From: a virus
Reading direction: 5' to 3' (one strand)
DNA length: 29,391 nucleotides
Virus record (IMG/VR): IMGVR_UViG_3300031951_000891
Span: 1 to 29,391 of that record
Shown: positions 9,467 through 26,274 of the stretch, piece after piece
Position numbering within the stretch: position 1 is the stretch's first letter
How the letters are laid out: each line of letters starts with the position of its first letter
The notes under the pieces: model-generated
Database searches by the model: none
The model's input: only the letters and a program-made list of their open reading frames with translations
Told to the model about the DNA's origin: nothing
Position numbers and translations under genes: made by a program

Positions 9467-10846
9467 TTACGTCGGGATTTCCACCCAGACTACTGTATTG
9501 CCATCTACTACTTGAGTCCAGTTCCCCGTCTGGGAGTCATCAACTGCTTGCCAGTTGGGGGTCTGTGTATCGTTGACAGCCGTCCAACTCCCAGCTTGCG
9601 CATCATCTACCGGCTGCCAATTAGGGGTTTGGTTGTCATTTATGACTCCCCAGATAAGTGGTGTAGTTACGTACCCTACAGCTGATACACCAACCGGTAG
9701 CGCTTTGGAACTCCCTACTACCGTAACAGAGCCAACAGAAGCTGTAGCGTTGACCCCTGTAACTACTACGCTGCGGGGCAGCGCGACGAAGACTGAACCT
9801 ACCGCACCCGTACCAGCAACCCCGGTGACAGATACATTAACTCCCGCAGTCACACTAACCGAGACGGTGCCAATAGACCCAGTAGCTTCTACGCCGGTCA
9901 GGGTAGTGTTAGCCTTGGCCGCTACGGTAGCAGTGCCGACGGACCCGGTTGCGCTGACCCCAGTGACGGGGACGTTGAGGATAACTAGCGCAGTAGCGGT
10001 GCCGATGGAGCCAACTGCGCTGACCCCAGTGACGGTAGTGTTAGCCTTGGCGGCAACCGTAGCGGTGCCGATAGAGCCAGTGGCTTCTACGCCAGTAGGT
10101 GTGACGTTGGCCTTGGCAGTAACCGTAACCGTACCGATAGAGCCGGTGGCGCTGACCCCGGTGACGGTAGTGTTGGCCTTGGCGGCGACAGTCGAGGCAC
10201 CGATAGCGCCAGTAGCGCTGACCCCGGTAACGGTAGTGTTAGCCTTACCTACGGCATCGGCGGTGCCGATGGAGCCAGTCGCCGCTACGCCTGTGACCGA
10301 GACTAACGTAGCACCTACGCTGACCGTAACAGTGCCGATGGAGCCAGTCGCGCTGACCCCCGTCAGGGTGGTGTTAGCCTTACCTGTAGCGTCAACGGTA
10401 CCGATAGCGCCGGTAGCAACAACGCCTGTGACTGCTACGTTAGTAGTGCCCGCACTGATGGTAACCGTACCGACAGCACCGGTAGCTTCCACACCAGTTA
10501 GAGTGACGTTGGCCTTGGCTGCGACTGCGACTGTACCGACAGCACCGGTAGCTTCTACACCCGTTACCGTGGTGTTGGCTTTGCCCGTAGCATCCGCAGT
10601 GCCGATGGAGCCGGTAGCGACGACGCCTGTTACGGTAGTGTTGGCCTTGGCCGCTACGGTCGCGGTGCCGATAGCGCCGGTAGCTTCTACGCCGGTTAGT
10701 GTGGTGTTAGCTTTGGCTGCGACTGCGACTGTACCGACAGCACCGGTAGCTTCTACACCAGTTACGTTTACGGTTACCGCACCGGATGCAGCCGCGCTCG
10801 GGAATGCGCCGAGTGGTAGTGCACCAAGGGGAGCGAAACCAAGCAT
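9467..10846 (-). CDS. Repetitive fibre-like protein (16 tandem 22-residue repeats)
   Basis: 459 aa with three parts. Residues 1-24 are a hydrophobic Gly/Ala/Leu/Phe segment (MLGFAPLGALPLGAFP). Residues 25-383 are about 16 tandem units of 22-24 residues with consensus VTGVxATGSIGTxxVxAKANT, each likely giving two beta strands, followed by a degenerate unit. Residues 403-457 are five 11-residue units with a fixed Trp and Asp (N/D-D-x-Q-T-x-N-W-x-x-V). Such stacked strands suggest a thin fibre or spike. Position between other adhesin genes supports a surface role. The ribosome-binding site is GGTGGTAG-like. A long antisense frame here is a by-product of the repeats. Confidence 0.65.
   Translation of the reverse strand: MLGFAPLGALPLGAFPSAAASGAVTVNVTGVEATGAVGTVAVAAKANTTLTGVEATGAIGTATVAAKANTTVTGVVATGSIGTADATGKANTTVTGVEATGAVGTVAVAAKANVTLTGVEATGAVGTVTISAGTTNVAVTGVVATGAIGTVDATGKANTTLTGVSATGSIGTVTVSVGATLVSVTGVAATGSIGTADAVGKANTTVTGVSATGAIGASTVAAKANTTVTGVSATGSIGTVTVTAKANVTPTGVEATGSIGTATVAAKANTTVTGVSAVGSIGTATALVILNVPVTGVSATGSVGTATVAAKANTTLTGVEATGSIGTVSVSVTAGVNVSVTGVAGTGAVGSVFVALPRSVVVTGVNATASVGSVTVVGSSKALPVGVSAVGYVTTPLIWGVINDNQTPNWQPVDDAQAGSWTAVNDTQTPNWQAVDDSQTGNWTQVVDGNTVVWVEIPT
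9476..9640 (-). repeat. Five 33-bp repeats encoding Trp-containing 11-mers
   Basis: Units read NDNQTPNWQPV, DDAQAGSWTAV, NDTQTPNWQAV, DDSQTGNWTQV and VDGNTVVWVEI. The regular Trp spacing of 11 residues suggests a small stacked carbohydrate-binding or trimer-closing tip. Confidence 0.8.
9698..10774 (-). repeat. Tandem ~66-bp coding repeats (16 units)
   Basis: The units are mostly 66 bp, with a few of 69 or 72 bp, and stay in frame. Each encodes TGVxATG(S/A)(I/V)GT. Copies differ at many third positions but share blocks such as the one encoding AKANTT, so recombination between copies could change fibre length. Confidence 0.85.
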
Positions 10847-11210: not shown

Positions 11211-12149
11211 CTACCACCACATGATGATGACAAAACCATCACCACCCTTACCGCCAGCACCACCAGTGACGCCTCCGCCACCTCCACCGCCACCAGAACC
11301 CCAACCGCCTTCCGCTCCCGCACCACCGACACCAGCAGCCCCGTTTGAGCCACCACCAGTGCCGCCAGAGGTGAAGAACGGCATCAGCCGGTTACGCATC
11401 TCGTCAACGCGCATTCCGCGATTGAGGCCGATGTTACCCGCACCGCCAGCGGCAGTGCCTCCAGCGACAGCCGAGAAAGGCCCGCCCGCCGGGATCGCAC
11501 CGCCCGCGAAGTTGGTGTTGCCTGTCGGCGTTCCGCCCCCGCCTGTCCCACCCGTCACCGGGATTGTCGTTGGTAGTGTCAGCGCACCGCCAGCAGCACC
11601 TGTGTGAGCGCCGCCAGCAGTTCCGGCCTGCCCCGCAATCGAGAAAAATACCGAGCCGGTCGAGAACACTCCCGTAGCGCCGACAGTGCCAGCCGTGCCG
11701 CCTGCGCCACCAGCTGATGCAGTCCCGGCACCGCCGCCTTGGCCGCCGCCACCCAGATAGGTCAGAACATTCGTGTTGGTCCCGTTCGGTTGAACCGAGA
11801 TGTTGTTAGCTTGGTTATTGCCACCTGCTGCCCCCGCAGCGCCGCCGGGGGCACCGCGAGCGACTTGCAGAAACAGGCTGTTGGGCAGCAACGCGGCGGG
11901 TATAAGCAGACCCTGCCGTGATCCAGACCCACCCCCCCCGCCGCCGCCTCGCGCCGTGCCAGCAGCCCCAGTAAAGCCGCCGCCGCCGCCGCCGCCGCCG
12001 TTTTGGTTGAGAATATAAATCCAGCTAGCCCCCTGCGGCTTGCTCCATGCCACCCAGCCACGGGTCGATGAAATCGTCCCGGAGTTATCTGAAACCGTAA
12101 AGACCCTGAAGCCCGATATGCTGTCTGTGGGGAGTGCGTCAGGTATCAT
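11211..12149 (-). CDS. Glycine-rich adhesin-like protein, paralogue 3
   Basis: 312 aa, last of three tandem paralogues. Residues 1-50 form a small beta domain shared with its neighbours (MIPDALPTDSISGFRVF and VAWSKPQGASWIYILNQN). Two long Gly runs follow around a TARGG core, then a LLIPAALLPNSLFLQV segment, then Gly/Ala/Asn-rich sequence with GGGGTPTGNTNFAGGAI, and finally GGDGFVIIMWW at the C-terminus. This architecture suits polyglycine-II sandwich adhesins. It holds an uninterrupted run of eight G on the coding strand (11932-11939). The start follows the paralogue stop by one base. Function as a receptor-binding protein is inferred. Confidence 0.65.
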   Translation of the reverse strand: MIPDALPTDSISGFRVFTVSDNSGTISSTRGWVAWSKPQGASWIYILNQNGGGGGGGGFTGAAGTARGGGGGGGSGSRQGLLIPAALLPNSLFLQVARGAPGGAAGAAGGNNQANNISVQPNGTNTNVLTYLGGGGQGGGAGTASAGGAGGTAGTVGATGVFSTGSVFFSIAGQAGTAGGAHTGAAGGALTLPTTIPVTGGTGGGGTPTGNTNFAGGAIPAGGPFSAVAGGTAAGGAGNIGLNRGMRVDEMRNRLMPFFTSGGTGGGSNGAAGVGGAGAEGGWGSGGGGGGGGVTGGAGGKGGDGFVIIMWW

Positions 12150-12150
12150 G

Positions 12151-13074
12151 TCACCACCACATAATCATTACGAAGCCGTCGCCGCCTTGGCCGCCAGCCC
12201 CACCGGTCACACCGCCGCCGCCTCCGCCGCCTCCGCAGCCGTAAGCCCCGCGCCCACCACGACCGCCGACACCAGAGGCCCCGTTGCTGCCGCCCCCCGT
12301 CCCGCCTGAAAAGAACAAGCCTTCAAGCGGAGAGACACGCGTGTCGAGTTGGATGCCGAAGTTAAGCCCGTTGAGGCCGTCCCCACCGCCCGCCACACCA
12401 CCAGCAATGGTAGGCATTCGGCCCGCAGCATTGATCGCACCACCTGCAAAATTGGTGTTGCCGGTTGGTGTGCCGCCCCCTCCAGTCCCGCCTGTAACCC
12501 ATGTGGTGGGCGGCGTAAGCGCCGCGCCTGCCGCACCCGTCTGCGCGCCGCCAGCCGTGCCGCCGCCGCCCGCAATGATGTAGAGAAGCCCGCCTGCTCC
12601 GAACGGGACTGTCCCCGCCGTGCTGCTCGCCCCGCCTGCGGTTCCGCCAGCCGTGCCTGATCCAGCGCCGCCGCCAATCGAGTTACCCGCGCCGTTCAAG
12701 ATACCGACTTGGTTGATGGTGGCTTGGTCAACGCAAATGTCGTTGGCAGTCCCGTTGTTGCCAGCACTGCCAGCAGAACCAGCCGGACCGCCCGCATGGA
12801 CCTTTATCCAGATGCGATCCGGCAGGAGACAGGCGGGGATCAACAGGCGCTGGCAAGACCCTGCGCCCCCACCACCGCCACCGCCGCGCGCCGTTCCTGC
12901 GGCACCGGAAAAGCCGCCACCGCCGCCGCCGCCGGGGTTCTGATTGATCATATAGATGAACGTGCAGCCTTGCGGCTTATCCCAGTGCGTCCACGCACTA
13001 CTGCTCTGGCCCGAGCCCTTAGTAAAGAACCGGTAGCCGGAAACGCTGTCCAGCGGGAGGGGGAAGGGGATCAT
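12151..13074 (-). CDS. Glycine-rich adhesin-like protein, paralogue 2
   Basis: 307 aa, middle copy of the tandem triplet. It keeps the common frame: MIPFPLPLDSVSGYRFF start, HWDKPQGCTFIYMINQN, Gly runs around TARGG, LLIPACLLPDRIWIKV, GGGGTPTGNTNFAGGAI and a GGDGFVMIMWW end. It differs from its neighbours mainly in residues 95-190, the loop-rich Gly/Ala/Asn part, and in the stretch before the terminal Gly block. Two Cys appear that paralogue 3 lacks. The ATG lies one base after the TGA of paralogue 1, so translation is probably coupled. Likely surface-exposed; the receptor is unknown. Confidence 0.65.
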   Translation of the reverse strand: MIPFPLPLDSVSGYRFFTKGSGQSSSAWTHWDKPQGCTFIYMINQNPGGGGGGGFSGAAGTARGGGGGGGAGSCQRLLIPACLLPDRIWIKVHAGGPAGSAGSAGNNGTANDICVDQATINQVGILNGAGNSIGGGAGSGTAGGTAGGASSTAGTVPFGAGGLLYIIAGGGGTAGGAQTGAAGAALTPPTTWVTGGTGGGGTPTGNTNFAGGAINAAGRMPTIAGGVAGGGDGLNGLNFGIQLDTRVSPLEGLFFSGGTGGGSNGASGVGGRGGRGAYGCGGGGGGGGVTGGAGGQGGDGFVMIMWW

Positions 13075-13075
13075 C

Positions 13076-14005
13076 TCACCACCACGCTACGAGGACGAAA
13101 CCATCCCCGCCTTGGCCGCCAGCGCCGCCAGTCACACCGCCGCCGCCGCCACCGCCGCCCGATCCCCAGCCTGCGCGCCCTCCGTTGCCGCCCACACCAG
13201 CCGCGCCGTTGGTGCCACCCCCGCTCCCGCCAGAGGTAAAGAAGGGCCGAAGACGCTGGCTCAATGCGTCAACCCGTGAGCCGATACCCAAGCCGGGAAG
13301 CCCAGCGCCACCAGCAGCAGCGCCGCCCGCAATCTGCGGCCACGCCCCCGTCGCGGTGATCGCGCCGCCGGTGAAATTGGTATTGCCGGTCGGGGTGCCG
13401 CCGCCGCCCGCCCCCCCTGTCAGGAAAACCTGAGCGCTTGGCGTGACGGATGAGCCGTTAGCGCCGGTATGGGCACCGCCCGCAGAGCCGCCTTGCCCCG
13501 CAATGGTCGCAAAGGCCGCGCCGAACGCCATCGGCCCGGGGTTGCCGATAGCACCCGCACTGCCGCCAGAACCGCCCGCCGATGCGGTCCCGGCACCCCC
13601 ACCGATGCCGTTCGCGCCGGGATTAACGAGGACGTTCTGGGTTGTGGTATTCGGCGCGATGCAGATGTAGCTGCTGCCACCGTTGCTCCCTGCCGCGCTT
13701 GCCGCACCGCCCGCACCGCCGCTGCCGGGCTTGAAGTAGAGCGTGTCGGGCAGCACCGCCGCCGGGATCAGCAGGCGGCTCACCGAGCCGCTCCCACCAC
13801 CACCTCCACCCCCGCGAGCCGTGCCCGCCGCGCCGGTGCGGCCACCCCCGCCGCCACCGCCGCCGTTCAACACCAGAAAATAGATCATCGAGCAGCCTTG
13901 CGGCTTGCTCCACGCCACCCAGCCGCGTGTCGTCGTCCCATCCAGCGAGGGCTGGAAGAACTGAATACCGGTTACGCCATCTATGGGGAGGGCGTTAGGG
14001 ATCAT
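13076..14005 (-). CDS. Glycine-rich adhesin-like protein, paralogue 1
   Basis: 309 aa from the ATG at 14005, one base after the TGA of the upstream gene; the frame is open 24 codons further up, but that part overlaps the upstream coding region and lacks the conserved MIPxxLPxD start. It shares all blocks of the two following paralogues: VAWSKPQGCSMIYFLVLN, Gly runs around TARGG, LLIPAAVLPDTLYFKP, GGGGTPTGNTNFTGGAI and the GGDGFVLVAWW end. Variation is concentrated between the blocks. The triplet looks like local gene duplication followed by divergence of exposed loops. Confidence 0.65.
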   Translation of the reverse strand: MIPNALPIDGVTGIQFFQPSLDGTTTRGWVAWSKPQGCSMIYFLVLNGGGGGGGGRTGAAGTARGGGGGGGSGSVSRLLIPAAVLPDTLYFKPGSGGAGGAASAAGSNGGSSYICIAPNTTTQNVLVNPGANGIGGGAGTASAGGSGGSAGAIGNPGPMAFGAAFATIAGQGGSAGGAHTGANGSSVTPSAQVFLTGGAGGGGTPTGNTNFTGGAITATGAWPQIAGGAAAGGAGLPGLGIGSRVDALSQRLRPFFTSGGSGGGTNGAAGVGGNGGRAGWGSGGGGGGGGVTGGAGGQGGDGFVLVAWW

Positions 14006-14006
14006 G

Positions 14007-14453
14007 TCAATACTTCGAACCGAAGGTCGTGACAGCGTATCCAGTGCCCGACGCGCCGGTCGAAGTGCCGAAACCAATCAGCAGGCGAGTGCCCGGAGGC
14101 AGGGCGCGGCGCACCGAGAACACATAGGCGTTCTGGGCCAGTGTGTTGGACGTAGTGGTCACAACCGTGCTGATCTCGTCGATCATCGCAGTGTTCGCCA
14201 CCGTGTTAGTCGTGCCGGGTGTGAAAGCACCAGTCGCGGTGCAGAAGAACAGGCGCGCGACAGTCGCGGCGGGAGAACCCACCGGCTTGAGGACCACGCT
14301 ATCCACCCAGCCACCCTCGGTAGCGTCGGCCTGAAAGATCACCTCCAGTGTGCCGGTGCCGTCCTGTGCCGTGACAGCCGTTGGGCCTCGGACAGCACCA
14401 CCGACCTGAACATCAGGGGTGCGGCCATAGATCGGATTGACGTTAGCTGCCAT
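14007..14453 (-). CDS. Small virion/tail-associated protein
   Basis: 148 aa. All-beta appearance with Thr/Gly/Ala-rich strands (GTGTLEVIFQADATEGGWVD, ATVARLFFCTATGAFTPG, PPGTRLLIGFGTSTGASG). GAGGTG lies a few bases before the ATG. It stands between another small beta protein and the Gly-rich adhesins, so a baseplate or adhesin-adaptor role fits. Small proteins of this look are frequent in phage tail regions, but I cannot name the family. Confidence 0.6.
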   Translation of the reverse strand: MAANVNPIYGRTPDVQVGGAVRGPTAVTAQDGTGTLEVIFQADATEGGWVDSVVLKPVGSPAATVARLFFCTATGAFTPGTTNTVANTAMIDEISTVVTTTSNTLAQNAYVFSVRRALPPGTRLLIGFGTSTGASGTGYAVTTFGSKY

Positions 14454-16651: not shown

Positions 16652-17332
16652 CTACCCCACTGGGTACCGAACTTGCGGAGTCCGGTACATGTCCTGACGA
16701 TTCTTACCTTCACCGAGCTGCTTGAGCAGCATCATAGCCTCATCATACCGCTTCTGGTACCCGGCGATTACATCTGCTTCGCCCTTCATGAAGGTATATG
16801 CTTCTAGTAGCGCGCCGTAAAGAAGGGTGCTGTCGAAGTTGTCGCCGAGCCATGACGTACCCGCAGTCACAATCGAGGTCGGGTAGTAGAAGTAATGAAG
16901 CTCAACGACATAGTTAGCATCCGGGGTCGGCCCGAGGATGTATGAGTTCTCGTCGAAATAGGCGTAGTGGGTAGGCAGCCCTGAGTCAGTAGGGTTCGGG
17001 AACGACTCACGGATAAAGCTTACGTCCGTATTCAGGAGGTAGCTGTAGTTGCCTGTAACATCGACTACCGCCAACGAGAAGTTAGCGAGCCAGTCAGTCG
17101 GCACCGTGAGGTACTTGTTCCCCGACGTCACAGAACCAGTTACGTTCTTACGTAGGTCCAGCAGCTGGACCGTGTTGAAGATACGCTGCTCAGCCTGCTG
17201 GATGAACGTGTTGATCTGTTCGGTAGACGTCAGCGTCACCGTGCTGGAGCCGTCGGAGCCGGTCCACGAAGTGTTGGGGAAGTCGTTCTCGACGTACCCC
17301 TTGATGGTCTCGAACAGAGTCGCGTAGTTCAT
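16652..17332 (-). CDS. Putative head-tail connector/adaptor protein
   Basis: 226 aa, with ATGA overlap to the small gene upstream. It opens MNYATLFETIKGYVEND, followed by TSTEQINTFIQQAEQRIFNT, a beta domain with VPTDWLANFSLAVVDV, GPTPDANYVVELHYFYYP and a C-terminal helical pair with YGALLEAYTFMKGEADVI and YQKRYDEAMMLLKQLGEG. Helix-beta-helix order with WLA..SL and a P-x-P-D-A-x-Y strand is that of gatekeeper or adaptor proteins like P22 gp4 and T7 tail tubular protein A. A related layout appears in the gene at 18023-18733, so two ring layers may be present. Confidence 0.6.
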   Translation of the reverse strand: MNYATLFETIKGYVENDFPNTSWTGSDGSSTVTLTSTEQINTFIQQAEQRIFNTVQLLDLRKNVTGSVTSGNKYLTVPTDWLANFSLAVVDVTGNYSYLLNTDVSFIRESFPNPTDSGLPTHYAYFDENSYILGPTPDANYVVELHYFYYPTSIVTAGTSWLGDNFDSTLLYGALLEAYTFMKGEADVIAGYQKRYDEAMMLLKQLGEGKNRQDMYRTPQVRYPVG

Positions 17333-17499
17333 CAGCCCATCTTCGTGCTGCTGCTGTTACCCCGAGTGGTATTCTTGGTACCACGGGTACGCATAGTCTG
17401 GGTGTTAGCGACCTTATTCGGATAGCCGTTCTTGCCCGTAGAGGCCGAATAGCTCTTGGGCTGCTCGTACTTCCCAAGGTCCTTGGTATGATTAGCCAT
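17332..17499 (-). CDS. Small basic Thr/Asn-rich protein
   Basis: 55 aa, read from the gap between the connector and the next gene. It begins MANHTKDLGKYEQPKSYSAS and includes TGKNGYPNKV, TQTMRTRGTKNTTRGNSSST, ending KMG. There is no hydrophobic core; the chain is basic and probably disordered. Its ATG lies inside the last codons of the 41-aa gene upstream and its TGA overlaps the ATG downstream, so it is tightly coupled in the operon. The TMRTRGTKxxTRG pattern recurs in small proteins of uncultured phages. Function unknown. Confidence 0.6.
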   Translation of the reverse strand: MANHTKDLGKYEQPKSYSASTGKNGYPNKVANTQTMRTRGTKNTTRGNSSSTKMG

Positions 17500-17617
17500 T
17501 CTTGTTGACCTTCCCCATGTCCTTAGTCGGCTTCTTGCCCGACTTCTGGTTGGCGATCTTCGCCAGATTGCGGCCCAGCTTCTTCATCTGCGCGTTAGTC
17601 TTGCCACCCTTAGCCAT
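17492..17617 (-). CDS. Very small Lys-rich protein (MAKGGKT start)
   Basis: 41 aa starting MAKGGKTNAQMKKLGRNLAK, continuing IANQKSGKKP and ending KVNKNG, with about 11 Lys. GGAG lies 7 nt before the ATG and overlaps the TAG of the upstream gene (TAGGAG), a convincing initiation site for so short a frame. The N-terminal MAKGGK resembles the KGG tails carried by proteins further upstream in the operon. Nucleic-acid or portal contact is a guess from charge. Confidence 0.6.
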   Translation of the reverse strand: MAKGGKTNAQMKKLGRNLAKIANQKSGKKPTKDMGKVNKNG

Positions 17618-17626
17618 AGCTTACTC

Positions 17627-18022: not shown

Positions 18023-18733
18023 TTAGATGTACGCGGGACGAGGTGCAATCCGAAGTGCGGCCTTCTCGCGGTCTTCGTCTGCGGCGTCCTGCCACGCGTC
18101 GTCGTACATCTGCTTAAGCATCGGCGTGCGCATCGTAGCATCGGGAAGCTTCACCGAGAGGTGGTAAGCGAGCCCCGCTACAAGCGCCGGGAGGAAGCGG
18201 AACGGGATGTCCTGCGTGTTGATACCGTTACCAGCATCCTGAATACGGCGCAGGCGGTAGTAAAAGAACGTGTAGAAGTTGCTCTGGTCGGGCGCTGGCC
18301 AGACGTTGATCTGCGGATTAGCCACGGCAGGCCCCGGTTCGGTCGCACCTGACTGGCGGTTGATCCACACCTGAATGGGCCGACCCTGAGCGTTCTTGTT
18401 CGGGATCGTGATGTATGTATCAGCGCTGATACGGCTGATGTTGATATCGGTCTGCTGCACGCCCGTCTGCGTGCGTACAACCTGCTCCAACAGGTCGATG
18501 GTGTCCACCGGCAGGTCGTAAGTAATCTGCCCCTGCACGAGCGGGATGCTCCCCTGCTCGATGGTCCATAGGTTGATACCCCGGTTGGCCCACTCGATGG
18601 TCAACAGGTTGAGGCTACGCCGCGCCGTGCGGAGATTATAACCGGTACGCAGCTCAGCACCACAACGCTCGAACGCCTCTTCTACGAGTTCGTTGAAGTT
18701 GAGGTTGAACGTGGAGGTACCAGTGGTGGTCAC
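18023..18733 (-). CDS. Putative head-tail adaptor protein (gp4/tail tubular A-like)
   Basis: 236 aa, starting at GTG 18733. The N-terminus is helical (FNELVEEAFERCGAELRTGY, TARRSLNLLTIEWANRGINL), the middle is beta-rich with TYDLPVDTIDLLEQVV, PIQVWINRQSG and NVWPAPDQSNFYTFFYYRL, and the C-terminus is helical with PFRFLPALVAGLAYHLSVKL and a KQMYDDAWQDAADEDREK helix. This order, including the WPAPD turn and the FYYRLRR strand, fits adaptor proteins that attach to the portal ring. The connector-like gene at 16652-17332 has a parallel layout. I am fairly sure of a neck role, less of the exact family. Confidence 0.6.
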   Translation of the reverse strand: MTTTGTSTFNLNFNELVEEAFERCGAELRTGYNLRTARRSLNLLTIEWANRGINLWTIEQGSIPLVQGQITYDLPVDTIDLLEQVVRTQTGVQQTDINISRISADTYITIPNKNAQGRPIQVWINRQSGATEPGPAVANPQINVWPAPDQSNFYTFFYYRLRRIQDAGNGINTQDIPFRFLPALVAGLAYHLSVKLPDATMRTPMLKQMYDDAWQDAADEDREKAALRIAPRPAYI

Positions 18734-18944: not shown

Positions 18945-19196
18945 TTACTTACCCTTCTTGAAGCCCTTAAGGACCTGAGCAAACCGAGCACGCTGCCCCA
19001 GCTTGCCGGGAGCCTTGGCGGCCTTGGCGAGCTTACCGGCGGGGATAGGCTCGCCCTTCTTGGCACCGAGCGATGCGCGCAGGGCTCCGGGCTTCTTGAT
19101 AGCGCCCTTGATCCAGTCGGCCTTACCACCCTTAGCCAACTTCTTGCCCGGCATTTTTGACGACTTCATGTCGCCCATACCACGTGAAGCACGCAT
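18945..19196 (-). CDS. Basic conserved phage protein (KKPGALRASLG type)
   Basis: 83 aa with roughly 20 Lys/Arg. A KLAKGGKADWIKGAIKKPGA segment precedes LRASLGAKKGEPIPAGKLAK and a C-terminal GKLGQRARFAQVLKGFKKGK. The KKPGALRAxLG...GKLGQRARxAQxLKGF string is a frequent conserved phage small protein of unknown function. Its ATG overlaps the TAA of the upstream tail-bearing gene. The first block also contains the KGG motif seen in neighbours. A DNA- or capsid-binding basic protein is likely by composition. Confidence 0.6.
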   Translation of the reverse strand: MRASRGMGDMKSSKMPGKKLAKGGKADWIKGAIKKPGALRASLGAKKGEPIPAGKLAKAAKAPGKLGQRARFAQVLKGFKKGK

Positions 19197-19486
19197 TAGA
19201 CTACCTTCCCCTTGGTCTTACCCTTGCGGGCGATACCGTCGACGCTACCGCCCTTGGCGTAGCACTTGCCACCCTTGGCCATCACGACCCGCTTGGTGGA
19301 GGTCTTACCCTTACGAGCGACGCCATCAACAGCCCCGCCCTTGGCGTACTTGTTGAACGGGTACTTCTTCTCCATCGCCTTCTTCTCGGCTTCCTCCTTG
19401 GGAGTACGCTTACCAGTGGCACCCGAAGAAATAGGCGGAGTCGGAGCGGGCTTTTTGGCGACGGGTTCAGTCGGACGCTTGTTCAT
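19196..19486 (-). CDS. Basic protein with two tandem KGG tail motifs
   Basis: 96 aa from the ATG at 19486, which has AAGGAAG upstream; the frame is open further up but that part overlaps the 298-aa gene. The N-terminal half is a Pro/Ala/Lys-rich linker (KKPAPTPPISSGATGKRTPK). The second half holds two tail motifs: YAKGGAVDGVARKGKTSTKR and, at the very C-terminus, YAKGGSVDGIARKGKTKGKV. A short MAKGGKC joins them. No fold is recognised. The duplicated tail strongly suggests that the motif is an independent functional module. Confidence 0.6.
   Translation of the reverse strand: MNKRPTEPVAKKPAPTPPISSGATGKRTPKEEAEKKAMEKKYPFNKYAKGGAVDGVARKGKTSTKRVVMAKGGKCYAKGGSVDGIARKGKTKGKVV
19199..19261 (-). repeat. 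KGG tail motif, copy A (C-terminus of 96-aa protein)
   Basis: Encodes YAKGGSVDGIARKGKTKGKV and a final V just before the stop. It matches copies B (19283-19348), C (19491-19553) and D (20889-20963) at KGG, at the small residue and D, and at GKT. Confidence 0.75.
19283..19348 (-). repeat. KGG tail motif, copy B (internal)
   Basis: Encodes YAKGGAVDGVARKGKTSTKR then VV, followed by MAKGGKC and copy A. It is the only internal copy. Confidence 0.75.
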
Positions 19487-19487
19487 A

Positions 19488-20384
19488 TTACTTCCTTCCA
19501 GCCTTGGTCTTGCCGCGCACGGCGATACCGTCGATCCTGCCACCCTTGGCATACCCCTTGACCGAGCCACCCTTAGCCTTGTTGGCGTAACTCTGATAAA
19601 ACGGGTTGCCAGCCTTGGCCTTTTCCTTACCTACCCGGATACGTTCAGCAGCAGCTGCTTCGCGCTCGGCCTTGGCTTTATTCATACGGGCTTCATTCTG
19701 AGCCTGATTAGCGGCACTACGGCGCAGCGTCTGTGCCAGTCGCTCATCTGCCGACGAACCAAACCCGATGGCATTTTTAAGGCGCGCAAACGAAGAACCA
19801 GATACTTCGGTGGGAGCCCCTTCCAGCTTGCGCTTAGCTGCTGCACTTTGAGTGAGGCGCGAGGCATATTCACCACGCTGCTGGACACCAGACTTTGGCG
19901 CTTCCTTAGGCTTTGTGGCAGAGGGAGAAGCGGTCTTGTTTTTATCCTGCAGCTGCGCGAACGCCGTTTCACGAGTGACTGGTGCGTTAGTCTTCGCTGC
20001 GCCTGCAGCGGGAGCACCGGACTTCTCTACCTTCTTCGGTGCCGAAGCGGGAGCGGCGGGTGCTGCAGCCTTCTTGGTTTCCGTAGCCGGAGTGCGGCGC
20101 ACAGGAGCCGAAGGTGACTTCTTCTCGCTAGCTAGCTGCGTAGTGAAGCTCTTACCCTTCCAAGTGAAGGTCTTGTCGCCGTCTTTGCGAGCAGCAGCAA
20201 AGGCCGCGCTAAACGAAAGCGGGCTAGCACCCGAGCTCGGCTGAGCCTTCGACACCGACTTGGTTTCGGCAGCGGTCATCTCCTTGCGCAGGGGAGCATC
20301 TTCCTTGGTCGAGACGTTAATGTCCTTACCAAAGCGCTTCTCAACGTAGTTGTCCTTGCGGAACTTACGTAGGCGGTCAGCCAT
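19488..20384 (-). CDS. Basic Ala/Lys-rich protein with FTWKGK motif and KGG tail
   Basis: 298 aa. Residues 58-83 include SFSAAFAAARKDGDKTFTWK and GKSFTTQL, a short motif (F..AF..AR..G...F.W.GK..TT) that I recall from many phage proteins. The middle (88-170) is Ala/Pro/Lys-rich and probably disordered. Residues 200-270 are helical with many Glu/Arg/Lys. The C-terminus is KGGSVKGYAKGGRIDGIAVR followed by GKTKAGRK, copy C of the shared tail. The protein is large for its neighbours and highly charged, so an internal capsid or DNA-associated protein is a fair guess. Confidence 0.6.
   Translation of the reverse strand: MADRLRKFRKDNYVEKRFGKDINVSTKEDAPLRKEMTAAETKSVSKAQPSSGASPLSFSAAFAAARKDGDKTFTWKGKSFTTQLASEKKSPSAPVRRTPATETKKAAAPAAPASAPKKVEKSGAPAAGAAKTNAPVTRETAFAQLQDKNKTASPSATKPKEAPKSGVQQRGEYASRLTQSAAAKRKLEGAPTEVSGSSFARLKNAIGFGSSADERLAQTLRRSAANQAQNEARMNKAKAEREAAAAERIRVGKEKAKAGNPFYQSYANKAKGGSVKGYAKGGRIDGIAVRGKTKAGRK
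19491..19553 (-). repeat. KGG tail motif, copy C (C-terminus of 298-aa protein)
   Basis: Encodes YAKGGRIDGIAVRGKTKAGR and a final K before the stop. A half-copy, KGGSVKG, lies just before it. Confidence 0.75.
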
Positions 20385-20387
20385 GAC

Positions 20388-20630
20388 TTACCCTTTCTTC
20401 ATCGTATCGAGTTTGGCCTCTAGCCGCTCAACGGCTCGGTCAAAACGTTCACCCAGTTTATCGATGGTGACGTTCATCTCGCCCCGCGTGATGTGGTCAC
20501 GCGCCACCTCTTCCCGCGTCCTGTTCAGTAGGATGCCGAGCCGCTCAACCTCATCGAACTTACCCTTAAGCATAAAACTTATGACTCCAAGGATAGCACT
20601 GAGTATTATATTCCATATCATCATCTCCAT
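20388..20630 (-). CDS. Membrane-anchored helical protein
   Basis: 80 aa from the ATG at 20630, one base after the TAG of the preceding gene; ATGs two and three codons later are possible because GGAG lies in codon 2. Residues 4-21 are a single TM helix (MIWNIILSAILGVISFML). The rest, KGKFDEVERLGILLNRTREE and so on, is a charged heptad-like helix with LGERFDRAVERLEAKLDTM. Charge around the TM helix (KGK after it) would favour a cytoplasmic C-terminus. It could be a lysis accessory (holin-, spanin- or anti-holin-like), or a membrane protein for ejection. Confidence 0.6.
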   Translation of the reverse strand: MEMMIWNIILSAILGVISFMLKGKFDEVERLGILLNRTREEVARDHITRGEMNVTIDKLGERFDRAVERLEAKLDTMKKG

Positions 20631-20631
20631 A

Positions 20632-20886
20632 CTAGCATTTCCACGCTCGAAGAGACTTGTTGATACGGCTATTAGGGTCACTAGCGGTCTTCTTGCTTGT
20701 GAGCTTCTTTTTCATACCTGACATGCGGGCACAGAATGACTTCTTGCGTGGACCGCCTTCAGGCTGTGGAGCCTTCAGACCGGGCTTACCCGGATTAGCT
20801 TTATTATAAGACGCGCGGCCTTTGGCGTTCAGGCCACCCTTAGGGTTCTTGCCTTCCTTACGCGTCCAAGCGGGCGTCTTAGCCAT
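20632..20886 (-). CDS. DUF6321-like protein
   Basis: 84 aa. It has WTRKEGKNPKGGLNAKGRAS, NPGKPGLKAPQPEGGPRK, SFCARMSGMKKKLTSKKTA and a C-terminal SLRAWKC. This pattern (EGKxxxGGLNxKGRxSY, SFCARMxGM, LRxWxC) is that of DUF6321 phage proteins of unknown function. The three conserved-looking elements, including the Cys in SFCARM and the last Cys, suggest a specific fold rather than simple basic filler. Its ATG overlaps the TAA of the upstream gene. Confidence 0.7.
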   Translation of the reverse strand: MAKTPAWTRKEGKNPKGGLNAKGRASYNKANPGKPGLKAPQPEGGPRKKSFCARMSGMKKKLTSKKTASDPNSRINKSLRAWKC

Positions 20887-21371
20887 TACACAAACTTCCC
20901 CTTAGTCTTGCCCTTGCTGCAGCAGCCATCGGCGCGCTTGGAGACGGAGCCGCCCTTGGCCATCTTCTTTACCGGCTTGGCCTTGGCCTTGCCGCCAGTT
21001 GGCTCATGAGCGTCGGCCTTGCCGCCCTTAGCCAGACCCATACGGAAACTACCACCATAAGCCGTGGCCCCACGGTCGCCCATCAAGCGACCAAGCGCAG
21101 AGGGTGCTTGACGCACAACAGCGGGGGCTACAGCCATACGAGACTTAGCGGGCATCGGAGGTGCACCGATATCGGTGAGGCGTTGGTTTGGCCCACCGCC
21201 CATCGGCCCAGCGCCACCAAGGGCCGCTGGCAGGCCGCCGCTATCCCTACCGATGCGGCTGAGGTCGAACTGTGAGGGGTCAATAATGACGTTATTGCGC
21301 CTACCCTTGACCTCAATCGGTGCGTCGGTGATCTCCCCGCCGTCATTAAACCGGCGCTTCTTCCTAGCCAT
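20886..21371 (-). CDS. Gly/Lys-rich basic protein with KGG tail
   Basis: 161 aa. The N-terminus is MARKKRRFNDGGEITDAPIE and basic; the middle is Gly/Pro/Met-rich (GGLPAALGGAGPMGGGPNQR) and likely disordered, with GRLMGDRGATAYGGSFRMGL. The C-terminus carries a diverged tail, MAKGGSVSKRADGCCSKGKT followed by KGKFV, with a four-residue insertion holding two Cys. The ATG overlaps the TAA of the glycosyltransferase gene (TAATG). Function unknown; it shares its tail with the genes at 19196 and 19488. Confidence 0.6.
   Translation of the reverse strand: MARKKRRFNDGGEITDAPIEVKGRRNNVIIDPSQFDLSRIGRDSGGLPAALGGAGPMGGGPNQRLTDIGAPPMPAKSRMAVAPAVVRQAPSALGRLMGDRGATAYGGSFRMGLAKGGKADAHEPTGGKAKAKPVKKMAKGGSVSKRADGCCSKGKTKGKFV
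20889..20963 (-). repeat. KGG tail motif, copy D (C-terminus of 161-aa protein)
   Basis: Encodes MAKGGSVSKRADGCCSKGKT and KGKFV before the stop. Between KGGSV and GKTKGK it is longer than the other copies and contains Cys-Cys. Confidence 0.65.
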
Positions 21372-22863: not shown

Positions 22864-23775
22864 TCAGGTCGAGCCCGAAGTGCCCCACATACCGAGGGGA
22901 TCAGACCAGCCGAACGAATAACGTTCGCGGGCCTTGTAACGGACGTTACCGGTGTCGAAGTCACCGTCCATGCTCGTGCTCATCGGAGTACGAACAAAGT
23001 GCTTCAGACCGTTTGGCACGTCAGTGGTCAGGAACCACGCGTTCGTGTCGGTCAGGAAGTGGTTGACGGCGTACCCTTCGGGGATCGAGCCATTCGACTT
23101 GATCGCGTTGATGTCGTTATCAGCAGTGCTGACACGCAGTTCCGTCTCAAGGAGACGGGTAGCAACGAACATCAGGCTTGGCGGTACGATCAGCTTACGC
23201 GGCTTGGCTGCGATGAGCAGACCACGTTCGTCCTGCCACGCAGCGATCTGAATAACCGCCGCTTCGAGCGACGTTTCGTTCAGGTCAACCTGAGTAGTAG
23301 GACGGTTGCTGTTGGTACCACCCGAGACCAGCGGGTGTGCAGTCGAGAACAGGGCCACACCGTCGCCACCGGGGTAGCTGGCGCTGAAGCCGTTGTTGAG
23401 GACCGCAGCAGCCTTGGTCTGCTTGGTGTACGACATGGCACGAGCCAGAGCCTTGGTATAGCGAGCCGAGAGGCTGTCATACAGGTTGTCTTCGATGGCT
23501 TCTTCCGTGAGCGAGAACCCGAGGGCAATCGTCTCGTGGGTGTAGCGAGCCGTGAAGGCTTCCTGACCGTTGTCGTAAGCGATAGCCGAACCTTCGTTCT
23601 TCACCGGCGCAGCCGAGAAGCCCGAGAGCTTGGTTTCTTCTTCAAACGAACGCTCAGAAGTCTCCGTGTCGAAGATTTCCTTGTGCTCTTCGCCGTAGCG
23701 GGCGTATTCGAGGCCGAACAGGGCGTTCAGTCCCGGCAGGAGCTCCTTAAGAAGCTGTGCGCGTGAAATTGCCAT
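22864..23775 (-). CDS. Major capsid protein (Mu gpT-like, HK97 fold)
   Basis: 303 aa. It opens MAISRAQLLKELLPGLNALF and has KEIFDTETSERSFEEETKLS, the E-loop-like acidic region, ETIALGFSLTEEAIEDNLYD, LARAMSYTKQTKAAAVLNNG and GVALFSTAHPLVSGGTNSNR, ending with YSFGWSDPLGMWGTSG. This is the pattern of Mu gpT-family capsid proteins (HK97 fold). There is no long N-terminal delta domain, consistent with a separate scaffold gene two genes upstream of the decoration gene. AAGGAG lies 8 nt before the ATG. A strong terminator follows the stop, as expected for the most abundant virion protein. Confidence 0.85.
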   Translation of the reverse strand: MAISRAQLLKELLPGLNALFGLEYARYGEEHKEIFDTETSERSFEEETKLSGFSAAPVKNEGSAIAYDNGQEAFTARYTHETIALGFSLTEEAIEDNLYDSLSARYTKALARAMSYTKQTKAAAVLNNGFSASYPGGDGVALFSTAHPLVSGGTNSNRPTTQVDLNETSLEAAVIQIAAWQDERGLLIAAKPRKLIVPPSLMFVATRLLETELRVSTADNDINAIKSNGSIPEGYAVNHFLTDTNAWFLTTDVPNGLKHFVRTPMSTSMDGDFDTGNVRYKARERYSFGWSDPLGMWGTSGST

Positions 23776-25839: not shown

Positions 25840-26274
25840 TTAGGCGCGGGAAATACCCCGTGGGTCTTCAACAACTGCTTCGACCGAGTCATCGTTGATA
25901 ATCCGGAACTCGCGGCCATGGATTTTGACTCGGCTACCAGCATGCGGGCGAGTGAGGATGAAGTCCCCCTCCTTGCACCACGGGCCGTTGGGGAACCGCT
26001 TCTCGTCCTTGAAGGCGTCTGGGCCGATCTTGAGTACGAACAGGACCGGGGTGGTCAGCTCTTCGTAGTGCTTGGTGATATCAGCCTTGAACAGGCCCCC
26101 AGCAGTCTTCTCCTCGGCGTCCGGGATCGCACACAGGATGCGATAGCCACTGGGCTCAGGAAGCTGTCTGGCCTTGCGCTCTTCTGTATCGGCAAGCACG
26201 GTAGTGTTGCCGTCTGCGTCTGCCAGCAGGAATTCAGGCAGAGTCGGCAGAATATCTTCTTCTACTTCAGTCAT
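25840..26274 (-). CDS. GroES-like co-chaperonin
   Basis: 144 aa. Residues 41-138 have the GroES order: PSGYRILCAIPDAEEKTAGG (strand and mobile loop, with GGLF as the hydrophobic chaperonin-binding element at 59-62), LTTPVLFVLKIGPDAF, GPWCKEGDFILTRPHAGSRV and EFRIINDDSVEAVVEDP. The N-terminal 40 residues are an acidic extension and the middle has a small insertion (FKDEKRFPNGPW). Phage GroES-like proteins such as T4 gp31 pair with the host GroEL to fold the capsid protein; here it lies upstream of the scaffold and capsid genes. The start overlaps the stop of the 65-aa gene by 8 nt, with GGAGG about 10 nt upstream. Confidence 0.8.
   Translation of the reverse strand: MTEVEEDILPTLPEFLLADADGNTTVLADTEERKARQLPEPSGYRILCAIPDAEEKTAGGLFKADITKHYEELTTPVLFVLKIGPDAFKDEKRFPNGPWCKEGDFILTRPHAGSRVKIHGREFRIINDDSVEAVVEDPRGISRA

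What the first reader, a model, noticed from the sequence alone, without database searches (positions are those of the whole stretch)
19196..20963. A shared ~21-residue basic C-terminal tail on otherwise unrelated proteins
Three proteins in one run (96, 298 and 161 aa) end in the same module, core KGGxxDGxAxxGKT plus basic residues, and the 96-aa protein carries it twice. The rest of these proteins does not resemble each other. A conserved tag fixed at the C-terminus of different bodies suggests a localisation or docking signal, for example into the capsid, onto DNA, or for ejection. I recall similar tails in uncultured phages but no function. This is the best candidate here for an undescribed system.
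Basis: partly seen in the sequence, partly recalled or inferred. Interest (0 to 1): 0.7.

Follow-up and report, generated by a model that had tools for sequence, protein, structure and literature searches.

The report
Shared tail tag on phage proteins
A group of uncultured short-tailed phages ends several otherwise unrelated, highly variable, positively charged proteins with the same roughly 20-residue tail, probably an address label that docks them onto a phage-made partner while the virus particle is built; the label is real and strongly conserved, but what it binds is still unproven.

Summary
Three minus-strand genes of one run (96, 298 and 161 aa) end in KGG-x(2-7)-DG-x4-GKT-basic, and the 96-aa protein has two copies; about 0.0015 hits are expected by chance. 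The tail is not a local curiosity. In IMG/VR contigs, 490 distinct proteins carry it. All 52 capsid-to-adaptor intervals found without using the tail contain 1-5 tailed genes. Apart from one N-terminal form just past the adaptor, no tailed gene appeared elsewhere in nine long (46-66 kb) contigs. Selection acts on the peptide: synonymous sites are nearly randomised, and GKT is K 436 to R 4. The tail is predicted to be unstructured. It is added right after the natural C-terminus of a domain (DUF6321) that is usually untagged. A sister lineage puts a different tail (KGG-VTSRGQGKVMR-KTRIC) on a homologous body, and the two tails never co-occurred. Tail subtypes covary within a genome and follow the virion gene trees. 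Bodies are basic (median pI 10.2), poor in order-promoting residues and highly variable. Best reading: a C-terminal docking tag for loading basic proteins into the particle, working like the T4/P1 capsid-targeting sequences but not homologous to them. Partner, virion location and ejection are inferred, not shown.

The parts
19199..19255 (-). terminal tag of the 96-aa protein, KGGSVDGIARKGKTKGKVV-stop
   Evidence: 26.0 bits to the tag HMM
19301..19342 (-). internal second copy of the tag in the 96-aa protein, KGGAVDGVARKGKT
   Evidence: 12.7 bits
19196..19486 (-). 96-aa tagged protein (ATG start; basic, pI about 10.4, no confident predicted fold)
19491..19547 (-). tag of the 298-aa protein, KGGRIDGIAVRGKTKAGRK-stop
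19488..20384 (-). 298-aa tagged protein; carries the FxxAFxxARxxGDKTFxWxGKxxxT module and a long low-order basic stretch
20889..20957 (-). tag of the 161-aa protein, KGGSVSKRADGCCSKGKTKGKFV-stop
   Evidence: 40.1 bits
20886..21371 (-). 161-aa tagged protein; N-terminal MARKKRRFNDGG module of a type shared with other tagged proteins
20632..20886 (-). DUF6321 protein, untagged here; 13 relatives elsewhere carry the tag directly after their terminal Cys
20388..20681 (-). small protein with an N-terminal hydrophobic stretch, conserved next to the tagged cassette
18945..19196 (-). 83-aa basic protein (KPGALRASLG..GQRARFAQ), recurrent next to the cassette; its ATG overlaps the stop of the 96-aa gene
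22864..23775 (-). major capsid protein (Mu gpT-like), upstream border of the tagged cassette
18023..18733 (-). head-tail adaptor (homologue annotated 'Pam1 adaptor protein' in phage DSL-LC04), downstream border of the cassette

Best explanation
The tail is a C-terminal short linear docking signal. It recruits a set of small, basic, mostly low-order, fast-changing phage proteins to one phage-encoded partner during particle assembly, most likely the inside of the prohead (capsid, scaffold or portal), so that they are packaged with the DNA. Shown here: the tail is conserved at peptide level, mostly C-terminal, modular and replaceable, confined to one phage clade and one structural gene cassette, and matched to the phage lineage. 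Inferred: the partner is a virion or assembly protein. Inferred further: the tagged proteins sit inside the head and are delivered on infection.
For: (1) A position-agnostic DNA pattern for the core hit at least 120 IMG/VR contigs; 150 of 285 motif-bearing proteins in them end exactly five residues after GKT. Of 490 distinct tagged proteins found later, 284 end within one residue of the model match. (2) 174 body groups by BLAST (134 singletons), some clearly unrelated: DUF6321, the MPSxSKKQHNFM domain, the YRKPT family and the FxxAFxxAR module. The tag follows directly after the conserved terminal Cys of DUF6321 in 13 proteins, while 130 homologues lack it. (3) Location: 52 of 52 capsid-to-adaptor intervals found with capsid or adaptor queries hold 1-5 tagged genes. 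The other tagged genes in those loci were one N-terminal form just past the adaptor, and none turned up elsewhere in nine 46-66 kb contigs. 130 of 131 tag loci carry core genes of this phage family; the other is a 1-kb fragment. (4) Peptide-level selection: within-genome tags are 80% identical in amino acids, yet codons differ at 51% of identical residues, against 58% expected from local codon usage. K is kept over R (436:4) and T over S (451:1), while neighbouring basic positions interchange K and R freely. (5) Lineage matching: tag residues -10 and -9 agree within a genome far above shuffles (z 7.6 and 5.3; overall 0 of 2000 shuffles). Tag subtype needs 4-7 changes on capsid, portal, scaffold and related trees against about 12.6 shuffled. 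(6) A sister lineage carries another tail, KGG-VTSRGQGKVMR-KTRIC, at 42 loci with no tag-A protein. The YRKPT body (56-60% identical) carries tail A or B according to lineage. (7) Bodies are basic (348 of 391 with pI above 9) and have half the order-promoting residues of core virion proteins. AlphaFold leaves the tag disordered (pLDDT below 50) next to a better-modelled DUF6321 (block means 67-82). (8) The N-terminal domain of one tagged family is homologous to the start of CBB_322, found in virions with 30 unique peptides (PMC5259590).
Against: No partner was identified and no virion proteome of a tail-bearing phage was found. Core capsid, portal and tail proteins do not carry the tag, so it is not a general assembly signal. 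Gene position alone does not prove virion location. Basic low-order proteins could bind nucleic acid or host factors in the cytoplasm. The N-terminal and near-C-terminal forms (28 and 159 of 490) show that the very C-terminus is not obligatory. Tags within one genome could resemble each other partly through old duplication or gene conversion rather than a shared partner.
Confidence: 0.45

Rival explanations
1. The tail is a nucleic-acid-binding tail: it and the basic bodies coat or condense phage DNA (or bind RNA) without docking to a specific protein.
For: The bodies are strongly basic (median pI 10.2) and so is the tail. A review of T4 reports that lysines of internal proteins are the only positively charged residues seen contacting packaged DNA (PMC3012670).
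Against: Strict D, G, K (not R) and T positions, lineage-specific tail types and covariation at -10/-9 are more than charge would need.
Confidence: 0.2
2. The tail anchors the proteins on the outside of the particle (capsid surface or neck), like an anchor for variable decoration proteins.
For: The genes lie between the capsid, cement and adaptor genes; variable, low-order proteins could act in adhesion.
Against: Bodies show no recognised carbohydrate-binding or Ig-like domain and are basic and low in order-promoting residues, which fits internal proteins better.
Confidence: 0.12
3. The tail works in the infected cell rather than in the particle: it docks the proteins on a phage assembly factor or enzyme such as the phage GroES, scaffold or terminase.
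For: Lineage matching only requires a phage-encoded partner; these phages encode a GroES.
Against: Tagged genes appear only in the structural block and nowhere else in the long contigs.
Confidence: 0.13
4. The tagged genes are mostly fast-evolving paralogues that began as duplicates; the tail is simply the only part still conserved, so body diversity overstates modularity. This concerns origin and can be true together with the best explanation.
For: Low-order bodies diverge fast; a KKxKR[YF]xxG N-terminal module recurs in 51 of 490; tagged genes sit side by side.
Against: The tail is fused to DUF6321 and to the KQHNF domain, which have untagged homologues in other phages, and the YRKPT body carries a different tail in another lineage. 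Even if many are paralogues, the tail still needs a function.
Confidence: 0.25
5. The conserved thing is DNA, not protein: a recombination site or ribosome-binding site read through at gene ends.
For: 221 of 248 tails end overlapping or within 2 nt of the next start codon, and the Gly codon at -4 is GGA/GGG in 161 of 221 such cases against 8 of 27 others, so the end of the tail probably doubles as a Shine-Dalgarno sequence.
Against: That explains one codon choice only. Elsewhere codons of identical residues differ about as often as expected by chance, and internal and N-terminal copies exist.
Confidence: 0.03
6. GxxxxGKT in the tail is a Walker A phosphate-binding loop.
For: The tail matches G-x4-G-K-T in nearly all members.
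Against: The chain usually stops about five residues after GKT, so the helix of a P-loop fold cannot follow. No fold is predicted. A true P-loop tolerates S for T, which is almost never seen here, and the isolate Pag-Yong1 has GRT.
Confidence: 0.02

Closest known systems
T4 internal proteins (IPI-IPIII, Alt) and their capsid targeting sequence (PMC3012670)
   Same: A highly diverse set of small proteins that share only a short conserved targeting peptide; the review describes them as defence proteins against host enzymes, encapsidated into the scaffolding core.
   Different: The T4 signal is an N-terminal 10-20-residue propeptide removed by the head protease gp21 (PMC5694885). Here the tail is mostly C-terminal, is not recognisably related, and loading is not demonstrated.
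P1 DarB capsid targeting sequence (PMC9024508)
   Same: A short terminal stretch sufficient to send a reporter into a phage head.
   Different: N-terminal, and no consensus among the Dar proteins was found; here one consensus is shared by up to five proteins per phage.
Encapsulin cargo-loading peptides (from general knowledge)
   Same: Short C-terminal peptides that dock different cargos onto an HK97-fold shell.
   Different: Not a phage system; recalled, not tested.
Short-tailed phages with the same portal and adaptor (Pag-Yong1, MinM2, DSL-LC04, HTVC023P, CRP-902)
   Same: Homologous portal and adaptor and a similar structural gene order.
   Different: Pag-Yong1 shows the tag in variant form GRDGCAKRGRTKGRFI (MinM2 and Pra-JY27 are records of the same length and gene layout); DSL-LC04 carries tail B; HTVC023P and CRP-902 have no tag in the capsid-to-adaptor interval.
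DUF6321 (PF19846) and PHROG 16759/22033/25121 domains
   Same: Bodies on which the tag is found.
   Different: The profile matches cover the body, not the tail; the tail itself matched no Pfam or PHROG family convincingly in these searches.

Membership tests
T4-type capsid targeting sequence | shared short terminal peptide on otherwise diverse proteins of one phage | tested here: met
T4-type capsid targeting sequence | located at the N-terminus as a propeptide | tested here: not met
   303 of 490 are C-terminal, 159 near it, 28 N-terminal
T4-type capsid targeting sequence | removed by the head maturation protease | not testable with these tools
   needs virion mass spectrometry
T4-type capsid targeting sequence | sufficient to package a foreign protein | not testable with these tools
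   needs a reporter fusion in a phage-host pair
Encapsulin-type cargo-loading peptide | C-terminal peptide bound in a pocket of an HK97-fold shell | not testable with these tools
   only single-chain structure prediction was available; no partner identified
Walker A / P-loop NTPase | GxxxxGK[ST] sequence | tested here: met
Walker A / P-loop NTPase | loop embedded between a strand and a following helix | tested here: not met
   chain usually ends about 5 residues later; predicted disordered
Mobile DNA or recombination-site element | nucleotide-level conservation beyond protein coding | tested here: not met
   codons at identical residues differ 51% vs 58% expected; only the last Gly codon is biased
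Known Pfam/PHROG family for the tag | profile match covering the tail | tested here: not met
   no convincing match to the tail region of the window proteins; no tail family recurring among the 106 relatives scanned; no solved structure by sequence

The most novel reading that the evidence does not exclude
This is a previously undescribed C-terminal cargo code of short-tailed phages: one clade-specific tag, with at least one alternative tag in a sister lineage, that loads an interchangeable set of basic, fast-evolving proteins into the head for delivery to the host, so that a protein fused to the tag would become phage cargo.
Probability: 0.33. Interest if true: 0.82.

Novelty: new variant of a known kind. 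Interest (0 to 1): 0.68.

Why it matters
If the tail is a packaging tag, it gives a sequence handle on the cargo of a common group of environmental phages, most of whose tagged proteins have no annotation. It would also allow phage-delivered proteins, perhaps counter-defence proteins, to be listed from metagenomes by their tail alone. Two lineage-specific tails on a homologous body would give a natural pair for finding the receptor. Even if the destination is different, a shared linear tag on about 170 body groups in one phage clade is unusual and directly testable.

Tried and rejected
No isolate was found by tblastn with the tail alone; the variant in Pag-Yong1 came from following the portal and adaptor instead. 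PDB search with the tail, the adaptor and the capsid protein gave nothing relevant. One collection scan was wasted on a pattern that I had spaced too strictly. Two of the five genome-contig matches (Simplicispira L125 and Patulibacter L127) look like chance frames without phage genes. An attempt to name the partner by asking which core gene tree best follows the tag subtype was inconclusive. Membrane proteins as the typical body were rejected: only 8 of 490 have a strong hydrophobic segment. Literature searches for Pag-Yong1, MinM2 and DUF6321 found no paper in the held library. AlphaFold of the 96-aa protein gave no confident fold. The Walker A and DNA-site readings were considered and set aside (see rivals).
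Full report
OBSERVATION. The window is a virus record whose genes run on the minus strand. Three genes of one run end in the same module: 96 aa (19196-19486, two copies), 298 aa (19488-20384) and 161 aa (20886-21371). Residue-shuffled ORFs give 0.0015 hits per window against four real ones, and the bodies do not match each other.

WHAT KIND OF PHAGE. Read along the minus strand, the order is terminase end, portal, GroES, scaffold-like gene, two further genes, Mu gpT-like major capsid protein, two small genes, a glycosyltransferase-like gene, the tagged cassette, adaptor and tail genes. Portal and adaptor relatives among isolates are HTVC023P and HTVC027P, Pag-Yong1/MinM2/Pra-JY27, DSL-LC04 and CRP-901/902. 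DSL-LC04's adaptor is annotated as a Pam1-type adaptor.

HOW WIDE. In them, 150 of 285 motif-bearing proteins end exactly five residues after GKT. Adding contigs found with the capsid protein and the adaptor gave 490 distinct tagged proteins: 303 C-terminal, 159 a little before the end, 28 N-terminal. A few of these are chance frames, such as those in L125 and L127. Of 88 complete capsid-to-adaptor intervals, 84 hold tagged genes; the four without are distant relatives among the annotated phage records. Of the 52 intervals found without use of the tag, all hold 1-5. Outside the interval the hits in those loci are one N-terminal form on a small protein past the adaptor. Nine 46-66 kb contigs read in full have no further tagged gene. 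130 of 131 tag loci carry core genes of this phage family; the remaining one is a 1-kb fragment. A stricter pattern hit only five contigs in the collection of 84,980 species genomes, two of them apparently chance. The isolate Pag-Yong1 ends its 309-aa protein UMO75986 in a variant tail.

BODIES. BLAST grouping gives 174 body groups, 134 of them singletons. This overstates independence, because low-order sequences lose similarity fast, and the largest group of 213 is chained by single linkage. Clear cases of distinct bodies exist. DUF6321 carries the tag directly after its terminal Cys in 13 proteins and lacks it in 130, including the window's own copy. The MPSxSKKQHNFM domain is shared with phiKZ-like phages and with the start of jumbo-phage virion proteins GAP32_317 and CBB_322; CBB_322 was found in virions with 30 unique peptides (PMC5259590). 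The 298-aa window protein has the FxxAFxxARxxGDKTFxWxGK module of other tagged proteins. Bodies are basic (348 of 391 with pI above 9, median 10.2) and have 15% order-promoting residues against 30% in core virion proteins of the window. Only 8 of 490 have a strong hydrophobic segment. Pfam and PHROG searches of 106 representatives found no enzyme family recurring.

PEPTIDE, NOT DNA. Within a genome, tags are 80% identical, yet codons differ at 51% of identical residues, near the 58% expected from local codon usage. Lysine of GKT is kept over arginine 436:4 and threonine over serine 451:1 (a simple regular expression, so a few misaligned segments add other letters), while positions -5 and -3 use K and R about equally and -9 uses both. 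One DNA-level overlay is likely: 221 of 248 tails overlap or nearly touch the next start codon, and there the -4 glycine codon is GGA/GGG in 161 of 221 against 8 of 27 elsewhere, so the tail's end probably doubles as a ribosome-binding site.

LINEAGE MATCHING. Residues -10 and -9 agree within genomes far more than in shuffles. The K or R subtype at -9 needs 4-7 changes on trees of capsid, portal, GroES, scaffold, p160 and p198 against about 12.6 shuffled; no single gene stands out as partner. DSL-LC04 has a homologue of a tagged body with another tail. Searching that tail found 41 contigs (42 loci with DSL-LC04) on two main body types, none with tag A, in a lineage whose capsid protein is on average 64% identical to the window's. 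The YRKPT body is 56-60% identical across the two tails. A single split in the tree could explain this, so it supports but does not prove a lineage-specific receptor.

STRUCTURE. In a tagged DUF6321 model, residues 1-80 have block means of pLDDT 67-82 and the tag (86-107) is below 50. The window's 96-aa protein has no confident predicted fold, on a shallow alignment. The tail behaves like a linear motif.

MECHANISM. I commit to a C-terminal docking tag for particle loading of basic proteins (0.45). Demonstrated: existence, position, peptide-level selection, modular fusion, cassette location, lineage matching. Inferred: the partner is a virion or assembly protein, the proteins end up inside the head, and they are delivered. 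[quoted passage not shown] Both are N-terminal, so membership fails on that point while the working likeness stands.

LIMITS. IMG/VR contigs are often fragments. ORFs were called mechanically. Body grouping of low-order proteins is approximate. No experimental virion data were found for any tagged protein.

Noticed in passing
window 11211-14077 (-): Three tandem glycine-rich proteins of about 310-330 aa that share their C-terminus (GGGGGGGGVTGGAGGxGGDGFVxIxWW); possibly tip or adhesin paralogues.
   Followed up: no
window 9467-10846 (-): 459-aa protein built of repeats like VTGVEATGAIGTVTVAAKANTT, followed by NxQTPNWxxVxD-like repeats; relatives in G002 and G003.
   Followed up: no
window 17332-17499 (-); relatives G003:16014-16223, G006:59701-59952, G002:27160-27423: A small protein next to the second adaptor whose relatives carry an RGTGAATKG-type motif near the C-terminus, another possible short tail signal.
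   Followed up: no
L013, L028, L032, L114 and others: A small protein past the adaptor carries the tag at its N-terminus (MAFTKSADGIAKQGKTKGKNLGDSGP); a short tag-free frame of the same kind (MAKGGKTNAQMKKLGRNLAKIANQ) lies in the window near 17500-17620.
   Followed up: partly
window 25840-26274 (-): The phage encodes a GroES-like co-chaperonin between portal and scaffold, conserved across the clade.
   Followed up: partly
L332-L372 and DSL-LC04 (L128:7313-7657): A second C-terminal tail, KGG[LFA]VTSRGQGKVMRTKKTRIC, on two main body types in a sister phage lineage, never seen with the first tail.
   Followed up: yes
G006 61813-64507, G003 19087-19848: Several fibre-like proteins end in a shared hydrophobic motif (PITVxSGVTVTVxSGxxWTVV), perhaps a trimerisation or attachment tip.
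   Followed up: no
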